A DNA stretch of 37,005 nucleotides from a virus. The position numbers were made by a program, and so were the translations under genes. Where the stretch lies: positions 1-37,005 of the IMG/VR virus record IMGVR_UViG_3300035659_000059; one strand, given 5' to 3'. The notes below the pieces were generated by a model. That model saw only the letters and a program-made list of their open reading frames with translations. It was not told where the DNA came from and did not search any database. How positions within the stretch are numbered: the first letter of the stretch is position 1; each line of letters starts with the position of its first letter. Shown piece by piece: positions 2,052 to 9,023 of the stretch.

Positions 2052-2081
2052 TTGACAAGCGGCGTGAAATCATGCTATACT
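2052..2081 (+). promoter_or_regulatory. Strong sigma70-type promoter
   Basis: A consensus TTGACA (2052-2057), an 18-bp spacer and TATACT (2076-2081), with a TG one base upstream of the -10 box (extended -10). The predicted transcript starts near 2088, exactly at the first arm of the interleaved inverted repeats, and would lead into the HNH gene and tape measure. It is one of the two best promoters in the window. Confidence 0.75.
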
Positions 2082-2087
2082 AGTGGC

Positions 2088-2224
2088 ATCCCTAGCAGGA
2101 TATCGAGCGGCTTTTTTATTGCCGATCGTCGTTCGTGAATTATCTCACGGGCAAAGGCCCGCGATTGGCAAGAGCTGCTCTTCCTGCTAGGGATAGATCG
2201 GCAATGCCAATCGCGGGCTTTTGC
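2088..2224 (+). ncRNA. Structured leader RNA with three interleaved inverted repeats
   Basis: Three perfect or near-perfect inverted repeats occur in the order A, B, C, A', B', C'. A is 2088-2100 with 2182-2194 (13 bp, exact). B is 2118-2127 with 2196-2205 (10 bp, exact). C is 2151-2170 with 2205-2224 (20 bp, one mismatch). They cross, so they cannot all form a simple nested structure. B can also pair locally with 2103-2110. C/C' ends in a T-run like an intrinsic terminator. This suggests an RNA with alternative folds or pseudoknots in front of the HNH gene. No known family was recognised. Confidence 0.55.
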
Positions 2225-2239
2225 GTTAACAAACGGGTT

Positions 2240-2270
2240 GCCCACCCTGAGATGAGACCTCAGGGTGGGC
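2240..2270 (+). other. 12-bp hairpin in HNH gene leader
   Basis: GCCCACCCTGAG (2240-2251), a 7-base loop and CTCAGGGTGGGC (2259-2270) are exact complements. No U-run follows. A weaker GGGGC/GCCCC hairpin lies at about 2274-2293, resembling the REP-like elements elsewhere. Confidence 0.55.
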
Positions 2271-2323
2271 GGTGGGGCGGAGAGCCTGCCCCACAGACCC
2301 CATTCTACCATAAGGAGAGCAAG

Positions 2324-3058
2324 ATGTCAGACCAAACGTTAGCCCAAGCGAATCAACAGGCAAACCAATGGGCGTATGAAAAGGCGCATAGATGCCTGGC
2401 TACTCACGGCTATTGGCCAGGGCCGGAGGAATTGAGCGTCAAGTTTTTCACCAAAGGAATGGAGGATGGCAGGAAATGGGCTACCAATAACATCGAGGAG
2501 TGCCTGCCGCACCTGACCCTGGAAGAACTGATGGCCATCCAGTACGCTGGGGCGATTTTGATGGACGAGGAGTGGCGCGACATTGCGGGTTTCCCTGGCT
2601 ATCAGGTCAGTGACCAGGGAAGAATGCGGTCAAACCACAAAGGAGGTGTTTGGAAACTATTGAAGCGAAGTCCTAGGACAGGTGGATATCTTACCGTGAG
2701 TTTGTATGATTATCCGGCCAAGAAGTCAAGCAAGGATGTTCACGATTTGGTTCTGGAGACGTTTGTTGGGCTTAAACCGGTTGGTATGGAAGCTCGTCAC
2801 TTGAACAGTGACAGGACGGATAATTATCTCACAAACCTGAGATGGGCCACTCATGCAGTGAACATACAAGATAAAGTAATCCGAGGTTCACAACGCGGTT
2901 CAAAGAATCCCCAATCTAAACTGAATGAAGCTCAGGTGTTGACCATCCGCAAGGAATATCATCTTGGGGATGGCCCATCTTTGGCGGATAAGTACGATGT
3001 TTCAAACACGACGATTTGGCGTGTGGTGACAAGACAATCTTGGCGACATGTGGAGTGA
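2324..3058 (+). CDS. Chimeric NUMOD4-HNH homing endonuclease
   Basis: 244 residues; the ATG at 2324 follows AAGGAGA. Residues 1-80 have no HNH features. From about residue 82 the protein shows a NUMOD4-type opening (EEWRDIAGFPGYQVSDQGR), then an HNH core (about 150-180, with ARHLNSDRTDN and NLRWAT), then a C-terminal helix-turn-helix-like part (SLADKYDVSNTTIWRV). Such proteins nick or cut DNA to spread themselves. Base composition from about 2640 is clearly more AT-rich than neighbouring genes, a sign of recent arrival. The insert may have fused to the front of an older small tail gene. It sits between chaperone and tape measure. Confidence 0.8.
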   Translation: MSDQTLAQANQQANQWAYEKAHRCLATHGYWPGPEELSVKFFTKGMEDGRKWATNNIEECLPHLTLEELMAIQYAGAILMDEEWRDIAGFPGYQVSDQGRMRSNHKGGVWKLLKRSPRTGGYLTVSLYDYPAKKSSKDVHDLVLETFVGLKPVGMEARHLNSDRTDNYLTNLRWATHAVNIQDKVIRGSQRGSKNPQSKLNEAQVLTIRKEYHLGDGPSLADKYDVSNTTIWRVVTRQSWRHVE

Positions 3059-3061
3059 AAA

Positions 3062-5701
3062 GTGACTGAAACCTCTGAACTAAAAATCATCATCACGGCC
3101 GATGATAAAAGCAAAGAAATCTTGGCGGGGAATAAAAAGAGCCTGCTGGACCTGGGCGAACTGGCGGGCGGCGCGCTGAAGCTGGGGTTGGCGGTCGGCG
3201 CGGCGGGCGTGGCGACGCTGGGGGCTGCGCTGTTTTCGAGCGTGGGCGCGGCGGGCGAATCTGAATTGGCGCTGGCCGATCTGGATGCTACACTGAAATC
3301 TACTGCGGCGGCGTTCAATCAAACCGCGGATGCCATCCCGCACGCGACGGATGAGGCGGCGGCGGCGATTGAAAAGGTGTCGACTGAGCATACCGAGGGC
3401 ATTACGAAGGTCACCGAGGAGGGCACTGAAAAAGCGGCAGACCTGAGCGAGCGCGTCGTCGAGTTGAGCGAGAACCTGGCTGAGCGGCAGGCGACGATTC
3501 AGGGCCAGATGGCAGAGGAGGCCGACAGTTTCAACGACCGGATGGCCGAATCGTCGCGCGCGCTGAACGAGCGATTGGGCGAGATGGTCGAGGCGCACGC
3601 GGAACGCGTTTCGAGCTTGCAGGATCAGATCGCGGCTGGGAATGATGGTTTCAACGACCGGATGGCCGAATCGTCGCGCGCGCTGAACGAGCGATTGGGC
3701 GAGATGGTCGAGGCGTACGCGGAACGCGTTTCGGGCTTGCAGGATCAGATTACGGGAGTGACCGAGGGTGCGGACGAACGGCGGCGCACGCAGCAAGAGC
3801 GATTGCAGGAGACGATTGCGAACATCGAGGAGCGCACGGTCGAGCGACGAGAGGCGCTGCAGGAGCGCCTGGCCGAGACCGAGGATGCGACGCAGCGCGT
3901 CAAATTGGAGGCGCAACTCGCAAAGCTGGACGAGACGGCGGCAAAGGAAAAATCGAAGGCGGAGGCGAAGGCTGCGGCTGAGGAGGAGCGGCAAAAGCGC
4001 GCGGACGACAAGCGCCTGGTGCAATTGCAGGGGCGATTGAACAAGGAGAATACCGAGTACGCCAAACAACAAGCAAAGTTGAGCGCGGATGTTGAGCGGC
4101 AGGAAGCCAAGTACAAGGAGGAACACGACAAGAAACTGGCGGCGCTGAAGGCGACGCTTGACAAGGAGAATGCAGAATATACCAAGCAGCAGGCAAAGTT
4201 GCGCGCGGGTGCTGCGCGGCGAGAGGCCGAGTACAAGGAGGAACACGACAAGAAACTGGCGGCGGTGAAGGCGACGCTGGATCGGGAAAATGCCGAGTAC
4301 GCCAAGCAATCTGCCAAGATTCGAGCTGAGCAGACCAAGGTTGAGACTGAAACGAAGGTCCACCTGGCTAAGCTCGAGGCGGATTATGGCGAGGCGATGG
4401 GAAAGGTGGCTGAGAAGTTCAGCGCCATCGAGCGCGGGTTGGTGGCGCCCCAGCGCGCATCCCAGATATCGCGGCAAGCGATCCTGGACCAGGCGGACGC
4501 GCTGCAGAACCTGACGCGGTTCGAGGATGACACGATCATCAGCGGCCAATCTATGTTGCTGACGTTCACGAACATCGGCGCGAACGTGTTTCCGCAGGCG
4601 ACTGAGGCCATACTTGACATGGCTACGAAGTTTAAAGGAATGGGCGTCGACAGTGCGGCGATCATGCTGGGCAAGGCGTTGCAAGACCCCATCACCGGGG
4701 TGACGGCGCTAAAGCGCGCGGGGGTCATGTTAAATGATACGATGATGGATCAGGTCAAGGCATTCATGGATGTAGGGAACATTGAGGGCGCGCAAAAGAT
4801 CATCTTGAAGGAGCTACAGACCGAATTGGACAAGTCGGCCATTGCCGCGGGTGCTACACTCGTGGGCAAGCTGGACATTTTGAAAAATAAATTCGGGGAT
4901 GTGCAAGAGAAGATCGGCGGGGGAATGGTGCCGGGCTTGACGATTTTGGGCAACAAGTTGATCGAGGTGTTGGACAAGCCGGAGGTACAGGCGGCGATCG
5001 CATCGCTTTCGATCTGGTTGGGCACAGAATTGCCGAAGGCGATCGAGTGGGGAACAAAGCTGCTGATGGATTTGCAGGAGGGCGGGCTTTCGGGCGTGCT
5101 GACGAAGGCGAAGGCGTGGAGCGAGGACCCGGCGACGAAGGCATTTTTGCAGGGGATAGGGTCACAGGTCGGGACTGGGATCGTGGAGGGAGTGCGGATA
5201 ACGGTGACAAATGCGCCGATATGGATCGGCCTGGCCGCAGAAATGGGCAATGTCGCTATTCCCATCATCACGGAATCGGCAAAGGCATTCGGGGGCGCGA
5301 TGTTTCAGAGCATCCTTGAGGGGATGGGACTGTCGAAGGATCTATCGGCGAAACTAACGCCGATTATTATGGCGGGCGCCGGCGCAGCTGGCGCGGCGGC
5401 TGCGGGACCGATGGGACCTGTGGCTGGCGCAGCTGGCGCTGGTGCAGGCATGTGGGAACAATTGAGGAATTTATTAGGATTTCAGAGCGGCGGAGTGGTG
5501 CCGGGGACGCTGGGCGCGCCGCGGTTGGCGATGGTGCATGGTGGGGAGACGATCACGCCAGCGGGTGGTAGTAGCGGTAATCTTACTTTCATATACAGCC
5601 CGCAGATGAGCCTGGCGGACGAGCGGGAGATTCAATCGAAGCTGATCCCTGCGCTGGACCGGTGGTACGCTGACGCCAGACGAAGGCGAGTGGTCGCGTA
5701 A
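3062..5701 (+). CDS. Tail tape measure protein
   Basis: An 879-residue protein starting at GTG 3062, four bases after the HNH stop. Residues 30-65 are hydrophobic, about 80-460 is a long charged coiled coil, then comes a domain with QSMLLTFTNIG and LGKALQDP of the kind seen in siphovirus tape measures. A hydrophobic Gly/Ala stretch follows, then the C-terminal pattern GGVVPGTLG...HGGETITP. It sets tail length and is likely to be released on infection. The coiled coil contains two sets of exact 120-bp tandem units. It is the longest gene in the window. Confidence 0.9.
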   Translation: MTETSELKIIITADDKSKEILAGNKKSLLDLGELAGGALKLGLAVGAAGVATLGAALFSSVGAAGESELALADLDATLKSTAAAFNQTADAIPHATDEAAAAIEKVSTEHTEGITKVTEEGTEKAADLSERVVELSENLAERQATIQGQMAEEADSFNDRMAESSRALNERLGEMVEAHAERVSSLQDQIAAGNDGFNDRMAESSRALNERLGEMVEAYAERVSGLQDQITGVTEGADERRRTQQERLQETIANIEERTVERREALQERLAETEDATQRVKLEAQLAKLDETAAKEKSKAEAKAAAEEERQKRADDKRLVQLQGRLNKENTEYAKQQAKLSADVERQEAKYKEEHDKKLAALKATLDKENAEYTKQQAKLRAGAARREAEYKEEHDKKLAAVKATLDRENAEYAKQSAKIRAEQTKVETETKVHLAKLEADYGEAMGKVAEKFSAIERGLVAPQRASQISRQAILDQADALQNLTRFEDDTIISGQSMLLTFTNIGANVFPQATEAILDMATKFKGMGVDSAAIMLGKALQDPITGVTALKRAGVMLNDTMMDQVKAFMDVGNIEGAQKIILKELQTELDKSAIAAGATLVGKLDILKNKFGDVQEKIGGGMVPGLTILGNKLIEVLDKPEVQAAIASLSIWLGTELPKAIEWGTKLLMDLQEGGLSGVLTKAKAWSEDPATKAFLQGIGSQVGTGIVEGVRITVTNAPIWIGLAAEMGNVAIPIITESAKAFGGAMFQSILEGMGLSKDLSAKLTPIIMAGAGAAGAAAAGPMGPVAGAAGAGAGMWEQLRNLLGFQSGGVVPGTLGAPRLAMVHGGETITPAGGSSGNLTFIYSPQMSLADEREIQSKLIPALDRWYADARRRRVVA
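3528..3767 (+). repeat. Two 120-bp tandem units in the tape measure gene
   Basis: Two 40-codon units, 3528-3647 and 3648-3767, nearly identical over their first 109 bases (FNDRMAESSRALNERLGEMV in both). The step is in frame, so it adds coiled-coil length. Confidence 0.85.
4076..4315 (+). repeat. Second pair of 120-bp tandem units in the tape measure gene
   Basis: Units at 4076-4195 and 4196-4315 share EYKEEHDKKLAA and KENAEY-like segments. They use the same 40-residue step as the pair at 3528-3767 although the sequences differ, and a partial unit precedes them. Confidence 0.8.
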
Positions 5702-7263: not shown

Positions 7264-7725
7264 ATGAACGCGACAGATCGGATCACTTGGGCGAAAACGA
7301 GCAAGGGGACGCGGATCGGGACGGCATTTGACATGGTCAGCGCGCTGCGGGGCGGCGATGGCCCGACGCTGATGGTGTGGTTGATGCGCCAGGCGCACGC
7401 GGTCGGGTTCGATTTCGATCCGCACACGCGGGGGAGTGTGCGGGCGGAGATCAATCACGGGCGGTGGATCGCGCACTGCGCGTGCGGCGGGGCGGAGGAC
7501 GTGGCGCCGGCTGAGCCGGTGTTCTATTGCCTGAGCTGCGGGAATGCGGATAACGATGGGCACGTGATGACGATAGAGTTCCCAGTGGATCGGGAGGCGA
7601 TCGAGGCGGCGCTGTTGAAGCGGCCCGAAATGGAGAATCGCAACTGGCAGCCTGGAGAATGTGTGGACGATCTGATCAGGGAAAATAGGGAACATGGCCT
7701 GGACGACACCGGCGACGCAGACTAA
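7264..7725 (+). CDS. Tail-module protein with zinc-ribbon-like cysteines
   Basis: 153 residues. CACGG at about residue 79 and CLSCG at about 95 give two cysteine pairs that could hold a zinc. The rest shows no motif I recognise. It lies between the distal tail protein and the fibre genes and overlaps the first fibre gene by 32 bases. It starts just after a start-associated palindrome and a G-rich ribosome site. Function unknown. Confidence 0.6.
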   Translation: MNATDRITWAKTSKGTRIGTAFDMVSALRGGDGPTLMVWLMRQAHAVGFDFDPHTRGSVRAEINHGRWIAHCACGGAEDVAPAEPVFYCLSCGNADNDGHVMTIEFPVDREAIEAALLKRPEMENRNWQPGECVDDLIRENREHGLDDTGDAD

Positions 7726-8338
7726 CACAACACTCGTGACGGCCGCTCTATGGAACGAGCAGATCACGAATAACATGCAGTTCATGGGGGCGGCGCATGA
7801 CCATAGCGGGGACGCCGGCGATGGCGTGACGCTGACACCGATCCCCTCCGGCATGATCGGGATGTTTGATGCGTCGTGTCCAGCCGGCTGGACACGGGTA
7901 TCTGCTTGGGACGCCAAGTTCATTCGAGGCGCTGCCTCTTACGGCGGGACGGGCGGGGCGGATACGCACACGCACGCCGGGCCGAGCCACACGCACGGGA
8001 TCGTGGCGCACGGGCACGTTGCATCATCGCACAATCACACGGGACCGAGCCATACGCACGCGCAGAACAGTGGTGGGGATGAGGACGAGTACAACCAGGA
8101 TGAGATCGTTGCCGCCAATTTATATGGCGGATTGTTTCGAGATCAGGTTGGTGGTGGATCTACTGTGATGAAATACCTCGGCTCGGGTGTATCGGCAGGC
8201 GGGACTGCCGCCTGTGGCTCAGATACCCATGACGTGGACAATGCCGCAGCGGCAACGTCGGGCGCGGGAACGGGCACGAGTGGAAGCGCCTCATCATTAC
8301 CCGCTTACGCCAACGTGATATTCTGCAAGAAGAATTGA
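7694..8338 (+). CDS. Tail fibre/collar-like protein, paralogue 1
   Basis: 214 residues. The N-terminus (MAWTTPATQTN, LVTAALWNEQITNN) and the segment PAGWTRVSAWDAKFIRG recall tail-collar proteins. A His-rich stretch follows with repeated HTH and HNH words (about residues 93-122), as in trimeric fibre tips whose HxH pairs bind metal. The C-terminus YANVIFCKKN is kept in all three copies. It overlaps the preceding gene. It is the first of three tandem paralogues and is probably receptor-binding. Confidence 0.7.
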   Translation: MAWTTPATQTNTTLVTAALWNEQITNNMQFMGAAHDHSGDAGDGVTLTPIPSGMIGMFDASCPAGWTRVSAWDAKFIRGAASYGGTGGADTHTHAGPSHTHGIVAHGHVASSHNHTGPSHTHAQNSGGDEDEYNQDEIVAANLYGGLFRDQVGGGSTVMKYLGSGVSAGGTAACGSDTHDVDNAAAATSGAGTGTSGSASSLPAYANVIFCKKN

Positions 8339-8369: not shown

Positions 8370-9023
8370 ATGGCCTGGACAGCAACTTCGACGAAAACAA
8401 CCGGCACCCTGGTCACGGCTGCGATCTGGAATGAGCAGGTCGCGGCCAACATGACGTTTCTGGGTGCGAGCCACGATCACAGCGGACATCCTGGCGATGG
8501 GGCGACGATTGCGGGCGGCGCGCCATCGGGCCTGATCCTGCCATCCGACGTGGCTTGCCCGGCGGGATGGACACGGTTCAGCGCCCTGGATAACAAGATG
8601 ATTCGAGCCTTCGCGACCTATGGCGGGACGGGCGGGGCGGATACGCACGTGCATGCCGGGCCGAGCCATACGCACGGCGTAGGGTCGCATTCGCACACGG
8701 GCGTTGCGCACACGCACACGGGGCCATCGCATTATCATTCACAAAATAGTCCTGGCGACACGGCGGCGGACGATACGGCAGCGGGATCTGGAATGTGGGC
8801 GGCGACACGGGCGGGTAGCGTGATCTACATGTGTGGCGCTGGCGCTGCATCCGGTAGTTACATGGGCGCTGGTACTGCCAATGATGGAACGGGTGCAACC
8901 AGTTCGGCGAATGCGGACACGGCCAGCGCGACGGGGACGACAAACGCGGGTGGGACAGGGAACACGAACTCCGGCAACACGTTGCCCCCATACGCCGGGA
9001 TTATTTTCTGCAAGAAGGATTGA
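8370..9023 (+). CDS. Tail fibre/collar-like protein, paralogue 2
   Basis: 217 residues with the same plan as its neighbours: MAWTATSTKTTGTLVTAAIW, CPAGWTRFSALDNKMIRA, a His-rich region with GPSHTHG and TGPSHYHS, a variable Gly/Ala/Thr region, and an end YAGIIFCKKD. The variable parts differ from paralogues 1 and 3 while both ends are conserved, which suggests receptor diversification by duplication. The start ATG at 8370 is eight bases beyond the REP-like hairpin and has no clear ribosome site. Confidence 0.7.
   Translation: MAWTATSTKTTGTLVTAAIWNEQVAANMTFLGASHDHSGHPGDGATIAGGAPSGLILPSDVACPAGWTRFSALDNKMIRAFATYGGTGGADTHVHAGPSHTHGVGSHSHTGVAHTHTGPSHYHSQNSPGDTAADDTAAGSGMWAATRAGSVIYMCGAGAASGSYMGAGTANDGTGATSSANADTASATGTTNAGGTGNTNSGNTLPPYAGIIFCKKD

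What the first reader, a model, noticed from the sequence alone, without database searches (positions are those of the whole stretch)
2052..2224. Promoter driving an RNA with three interleaved inverted repeats
A near-perfect promoter would start transcription at 2088, exactly where arm A begins. Arms come in the order A B C A' B' C' (13, 10 and 20 bp). Crossing pairs of this quality are not expected by chance and cannot nest. The third pair ends in a T-run. This looks like an RNA that switches between folds, a pseudoknot, or a free small RNA, placed before an HNH endonuclease gene.
Basis: partly seen in the sequence, partly recalled or inferred. Interest (0 to 1): 0.7.

Follow-up and report, generated by a model that had tools for sequence, protein, structure and literature searches.

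The report
Interleaved-arm RNA leader of phage genes
A short RNA made just before a phage endonuclease gene carries three pairs of matching segments in interlocking order, and the same layout with entirely different letters sits before many genes in other uncultivated phages, so it looks like a previously undescribed type of RNA switch that homology searches cannot see.

Summary
A consensus promoter (2052-2081) points at 2088, where arm A begins; arms run A B C A' B' C' (13, 10, 19-20 bp) and score 42 paired bases against at most 22 in shuffles. The same architecture lies in other phages whose arms share almost no sequence. In 16 strict members every element keeps the order A B C A' B' C', a -10 box ending 4-7 nt before A, B' abutting C', and a U-rich end of C'. 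Own arms pair 89-100% Watson-Crick; arms swapped between members about 51-58%. Some phages carry two to four copies. The next gene is often a homing-type nuclease (HNH, GIY-YIG), otherwise replication, recombinase or unknown genes. Rfam has no match. Best reading: a cis-acting 5' leader whose pairings compete during transcription. A/A' forms first, C/C' is the more stable terminator-like end state, and B/B' should oppose its completion. Structure class and RNA-level conservation are well supported; direction, trigger and mechanism are inferred and untested. New variant of a known kind.

The parts
2052..2081 (+). sigma70-type promoter, -35 TTGACA 2052-2057, -10 TATACT 2076-2081, spacer 18
   Evidence: a -10 box ends 4-7 nt before arm A in 16 of 16 members
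2088..2100 (+). arm A (helix P1, 5' strand), predicted 5' end of the RNA
2105..2115 (+). arm D (helix P2 nested in P1, 5' strand)
   Evidence: 9 WC + 2 G.U pairs with 2170-2180
2112..2117 (+). U-run between D and B, present in most members (absent in L053 and L019)
   Evidence: sequence
2118..2127 (+). arm B
2134..2149 (+). hairpin E (CGTGA/TCACG) in the B-C linker; counterpart in L015 with three pairs changed on both sides
   Evidence: sequence and alignment
2151..2170 (+). arm C
2170..2180 (+). arm D'
2182..2194 (+). arm A'
2196..2206 (+). arm B', directly abutting C'
2205..2224 (+). arm C', containing the U-tract 2219-2222; terminator-like
2237..2273 (+). hairpin F downstream of C'; sequence differs in L015 but a hairpin is kept
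2272..2294 (+). hairpin G; kept as a hairpin in L015
2312..2317 (+). Shine-Dalgarno-like AAGGAG of the downstream ORF
   Evidence: sequence
2324..3058 (+). downstream gene: NUMOD4 + HNH_3 endonuclease with an N-terminal part resembling the 73-75 aa ORF behind the L015 element

Best explanation
It is a member of a phage RNA class, defined by arm order rather than sequence, that forms the 5' leader of a gene with its own promoter. Transcription starts at arm A. As RNA emerges, A/A' (extended by the nested D/D') forms first. B' then can pair B in the loop of that hairpin. Last, C' emerges next to B'; full C/C' pairing, the more stable state, gives a long hairpin ending in a short U-tract just before the gene. 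Because B/B' abuts C/C', B/B' should oppose closure of the U-tract side of C/C'. The competition decides whether transcription, and in some members translation, continues into the gene: a cis-acting attenuator or timer. Shown: architecture, conservation, covariation, promoter position, U-rich end, predicted energies. Inferred: folding order in vivo, mutual exclusion, termination, the signal, and which state is ON.
For: Sixteen elements in order A B C A' B' C', own-arm WC 1.00/0.92/0.89 versus 0.51-0.58 for swapped arms. A -10 box ends 4-7 nt before A and a U-rich stretch lies at C' in 16 of 16. In nested-energy predictions the nascent RNA up to B' has A/A' in its minimum-energy fold in 16 of 16, while to the U-tract the C/C' fold is the minimum in 13 of 16; in the window they tie at -70.6 and -70.1 kcal/mol. 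Arm C' ends a few to about 100 nt before the start codon. In L038, L154a and L154b the ribosome-binding region repeats 9-10 nt of arm A, so A' could pair with either (p < 0.002 each). Descriptor hits at score 23 or more: 13 in member contigs and 3 in 1.8 Mb of other phage contigs, none in five shuffles of each.
Against: No transcript data. The U-tract is short (3-6 U) and interrupted by a paired G, so termination may be weak. The window element sits inside the tail operon, where a strong terminator would harm tape-measure expression. The RBS copy of A is absent in most members, the window included. Energies ignore pseudoknots. Some members were found with a descriptor that requires promoter and arms, and arms were delimited by hand.
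Confidence: 0.5

Rival explanations
1. A free small RNA, ended at C' and acting in trans, with arms A B C pairing with A' B' C' of other transcripts, as c4 antisense RNA does in phages P1/P7.
For: Promoter, compact 89-153 nt RNA and U-rich end in all members; arms differ between copies, as expected of orthogonal antisense pairs; two copies in one phage share the start of arm A (TGCTGAGGG, L026c and L026d).
Against: A start codon follows C' closely in most members; no Rfam c4 match; arms and targets are already in one molecule.
Confidence: 0.18
2. A stable folded 5' cap (large pseudoknot) that protects the mRNA from 5' decay or blocks nucleases, with no switching.
For: Arm A begins at the predicted 5' end in all members; A/A'+D/D' and C/C' could coexist as a coaxial H-type pseudoknot because the C-D'-A' strand is nearly continuous (inference).
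Against: Does not explain the conserved B/B', which abuts C/C' and should not coexist with full C/C'; a plain hairpin would serve.
Confidence: 0.14
3. A DNA-level feature: inverted repeats used for protein binding, recombination or insertion of mobile endonuclease genes.
For: Often next to nuclease or recombinase genes; found at different genome positions in related phages.
Against: G.U pairs (41) far outnumber A.C pairs (6) in the arms (biased because arms were delimited with G.U allowed, C arms alone 29 to 6); strand is tied to promoter and gene; no conserved repeat sequence or insertion boundary found (uninformative).
Confidence: 0.08
4. RNase III processing site: long duplexes cut to separate the mRNA from upstream read-through transcripts.
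For: C/C' of 17-22 bp is long enough for RNase III (knowledge of the enzyme); the window element lies within an operon.
Against: A single hairpin would do; own promoter and interleaving are not needed.
Confidence: 0.07

Closest known systems
RNA structures that block translation of phage homing endonuclease genes (T4 I-TevI, Aeh1 mobE, T4 segB; reviewed in PMC3014915)
   Same: Structured RNA just upstream of a phage endonuclease gene; presumed to limit expression.
   Different: Those are helices over the ribosome binding site; here three interleaved pairings start at the predicted transcription start, the site is not always covered, and non-nuclease genes are also served.
Intrinsic-terminator attenuators / expression platforms
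   Same: Early-forming upstream helix versus a later, more stable helix ending in U residues before the start codon.
   Different: Competition here would arise from crossing order and steric exclusion rather than mainly from shared strands; no leader peptide or ligand domain recognised; U-tract short.
c4 antisense RNA of phages P1/P7 (Rfam RF01695; listed in PMC2864571)
   Same: Segments paired in crossing order with segments lying downstream in the same transcript (from general knowledge).
   Different: Three segments, different layout, no Rfam match.
Genus-1 ABCABC pseudoknot ('pseudotrefoil', PMC3390330)
   Same: The arm order is exactly ABCABC.
   Different: The listed examples average 74 nt; here helices are long and linkers near zero, so simultaneous formation looks unlikely.
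Type III toxin-antitoxin and AbiF-type loci (PMC12373285)
   Same: Promoter, structured RNA, then a protein gene, in phages.
   Different: No repeat units, no ToxN/Abi_2 protein; downstream genes are of many families.

Membership tests
Any Rfam 15 family | covariance-model score at or above the gathering threshold | tested here: not met
   no match in the window, none relevant to E 10, only a tRNA in 12 member loci
c4 antisense RNA (RF01695) | match to the Rfam model | tested here: not met
c4 antisense RNA (RF01695) | acts in trans on an antirepressor mRNA | not testable with these tools
   needs experiment
Intrinsic-terminator attenuator | two mutually exclusive folds, one a terminator hairpin | tested here: inconclusive
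   competing folds of near-equal predicted energy in the window, but the terminator scan did not list 2205-2224 (loop longer than it allows) and the U-tract is short
RBS-blocking hairpin of phage homing endonuclease genes | helix covering Shine-Dalgarno or start codon | tested here: inconclusive
   A copied at the RBS in 3 of 16 members, not in the window
Type III toxin-antitoxin | tandem RNA repeats followed by a ToxN-like toxin | tested here: not met
   single-copy arms; HNH or other proteins downstream
Interleaved-arm leader class defined here | promoter, A at +1, order A B C A' B' C', B' abutting C', U-rich end of C', gene downstream | tested here: met

The most novel reading that the evidence does not exclude
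A natural RNA class defined by topology alone: each copy has its own unrelated arms, so copies do not cross-talk, and the interleaved order works as a ligand-free, self-contained co-transcriptional timer that phages plug in front of mobile nuclease genes and other operons.
Probability: 0.3. Interest if true: 0.85.

Novelty: new variant of a known kind. Interest (0 to 1): 0.7.

Why it matters
Structured-RNA discovery depends on sequence similarity to build alignments. Here the arms change completely between copies, even within one phage, so such a class escapes homology-based surveys while remaining easy to find with an arm-order descriptor. If the switch is real it gives a compact, sequence-programmable regulator with no ligand or protein, and a way for phages to restrain homing-type nucleases and other genes. 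It also makes testable whether crossing order itself can control RNA folding during transcription.

Tried and rejected
Rfam at gathering and permissive thresholds: nothing. DNA similarity to named phages and plasmids: nothing. Search by the window HNH protein in viral contigs: no relative. GTDB genomes scanned with the C-core pattern: 41 hits, mostly REP-like repeats or ordinary hairpins, none recognised as a member in the part of the listing seen (output partly cut). HNH relatives of L025: only one further element before the HNH gene itself (L191) in 69 loci, so the element is not a general HNH feature. Six regions of named phages around HNH genes: none. Comparing G017 with G018 for insertion boundaries: G018 is part of the same sequence, so uninformative. 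A self-splicing or group I reading was dropped: own promoter and no match. MAFFT alignment of seven members did not keep arms in register, so arms were paired directly instead. L150, L253 +5675 and similar descriptor hits were discarded as AT-rich repeats or plain hairpins.

Full report
Observation. The window is an uncultivated virus record of 37005 bases. Between two small tail-chaperone-like ORFs (so called from position, no family match) and the tape measure gene lies a promoter TTGACA-18-TATACT (2052-2081), then three inverted repeats in the order A B C A' B' C'. Sixty dinucleotide shuffles never exceeded 22 paired bases for such a set; the window has 42. A fourth helix D/D' extends A/A', so at 137-139 nt the nested prediction is a long rod; the C/C' fold has nearly the same energy (-70.6 against -70.1). 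The next gene encodes a NUMOD4 plus HNH_3 endonuclease.

A homologue. Viral contigs related by the tail protein were fetched. One, L015, carries promoter, RNA and two downstream hairpins at another position, between the tail protein gene and the chaperone-like gene, before a 73-75 aa ORF that resembles only the N-terminal part of the window's HNH protein. Its A/A' changes two pairs on both sides (A-T to G-C, C-G to A-T); hairpin E changes three pairs on both sides; B/B' keeps pairing through G.U (sequence and alignment). The closest relative, L004 (91% in the tail protein), has a different ORF at the window's site and no element there. The element therefore behaves as a movable cassette (inference).

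A wider class. Searching viral contigs with the core of helix C pulled loci with no overall similarity but the same layout: promoter, A at the start, A B C A' B' C', then a gene. A descriptor that ignores the core found more, including L106 and L191, and several copies in the same phages: four in G017, at least two in G016 and G020, and up to four in G015. At score 23 or more with a promoter required, member contigs gave 13 hits and 1.8 Mb of other phage contigs gave 3, against none in five shuffles of each set; one of the 13 (L253 +5675) looks like a plain hairpin.

Anatomy. In 16 strict members the order is always kept. Helix A has 186 WC and 1 G.U in 187 pairs; B 115 WC and 11 G.U in 126; C 274 WC, 29 G.U and 6 A.C in 309. 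Swapping arms between members drops WC pairing to 0.51-0.58. Two size classes exist: 89-110 nt with B next to C, and 137-153 nt with a hairpin in the B-C linker (window, L015, L038, L154a, L154b, L026b); L106 is intermediate. B' abuts C' in nearly all. A -10 box ends 4-7 nt before A and a U-rich stretch lies at the end of C' in all 16. In three members the ribosome-binding region repeats 9-10 nt of arm A.

Genes served. HNH proteins follow the window, L025a, L026a, L026b, L030a, L191 and G010b elements (L026b and L030a just below the Pfam cut-off for the whole protein), a MUG113/T5orf172 (GIY-YIG type) protein follows L026d, a serine recombinase follows L106. L026c and G010a look like GIY-YIG and Vsr-like nucleases by eye only. 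Others precede a replication-type HTH protein, a weak IS110-like helix-hairpin-helix protein, or small unknown proteins. Of 12 HNH or GIY-YIG Pfam hits in the element-bearing contigs searched, 8 have an element in front, including one found this way in G015. Some HNH genes behind elements stand next to replication genes and may not be homing endonucleases.

Mechanism. The A'-B'-C' strand is nearly continuous while its partners come in the order A, B, C. For B and C this means that a full C/C' helix and B/B' cannot both form with linkers of 0-2 nt; A/A' with C/C' can, as a large H-type pseudoknot. This is geometric inference. Nested-energy predictions place A/A' in the fold of every nascent RNA up to B', and C/C' in the minimum-energy fold of 13 of 16 RNAs to the U-tract. 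I therefore favour an early-A/A', late-C/C' competition that sets read-through, with B/B' as brake. In L038, L154a and L154b the freed A' could also cover the ribosome binding site. No transcript or termination data were available.

Known systems. Nothing in Rfam matches. Literature searches found RBS-blocking structures of T4-type homing endonucleases (PMC3014915), the c4 antisense RNA entry (PMC2864571), the ABCABC topological class (PMC3390330) and the AbiF RNA-protein locus (PMC12373285), but no description of this class. Searches cover only open-access papers held here.

Limits. Hosts are unknown. Members were found through a core pattern or a descriptor, so frequencies of features required by the search are biased; the promoter position in pattern-found members and the arm-swap test are not. 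The G.U excess is partly biased by how arms were delimited. The 16 set was curated by hand, and L019 and L026a score weakly in the automatic three-helix test. L030c, L053b, L053c, G010a and G010b show related but imperfect layouts, G010a with C' before B'.

Noticed in passing
window 2324-2575 and L015 1216-1443: The window HNH protein has an N-terminal part similar to the stand-alone 73-75 aa protein behind the L015 element, suggesting fusion or loss of the nuclease part.
   Followed up: partly
L004 3324-3746: The nearest relative of the window phage has an unrelated 140 aa ORF at the site where the window carries promoter, RNA and HNH gene.
   Followed up: partly
L016 / L241 (IMGVR_UViG_3300031707_000500): Fragment of what looks like the same phage species as the window (portal 100%, terminase 100% over the shared part) from another metagenome.
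   Followed up: no
window 3530-3750: Near-identical tandem duplication inside the tape measure gene (FNDRMAESSRALNERLGEMVEA... repeated).
   Followed up: no
window 7694-8338 and 8370-9023: Two adjacent similar ORFs (MAWTTPATQTNTTLVTAALWNEQ / MAWTATSTKTTGTLVTAAIWNEQ), a likely tail gene duplication.
   Followed up: no
L109 1620-1800: Promoter followed by overlapping A/B and A'/B' arms and a copy of part of A near the ribosome binding site, without a clear C; possibly a two-arm relative.
   Followed up: partly
L239 minus strand 13052 and 15661: Related but more complex leaders in a relative of the window phage: a 26 bp perfect C helix with order A B C A' C' B', and a version with more than three crossing pairs before an HNH gene.
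   Followed up: partly
L112-L152 (several Roseateles/Pelomonas and Acidobacteria genomes): Abundant genome-wide repeats of the form CAAAAGCCCGC...GCGGGCTTTTG that are REP-like and not members of the class.
   Followed up: no
L255 minus strand 2604 and 4541: Two elements in one phage share the start of arm A (TGCTGAGGG); another phage (G015, near 25200) uses GCTGAGGG as well.
   Followed up: no
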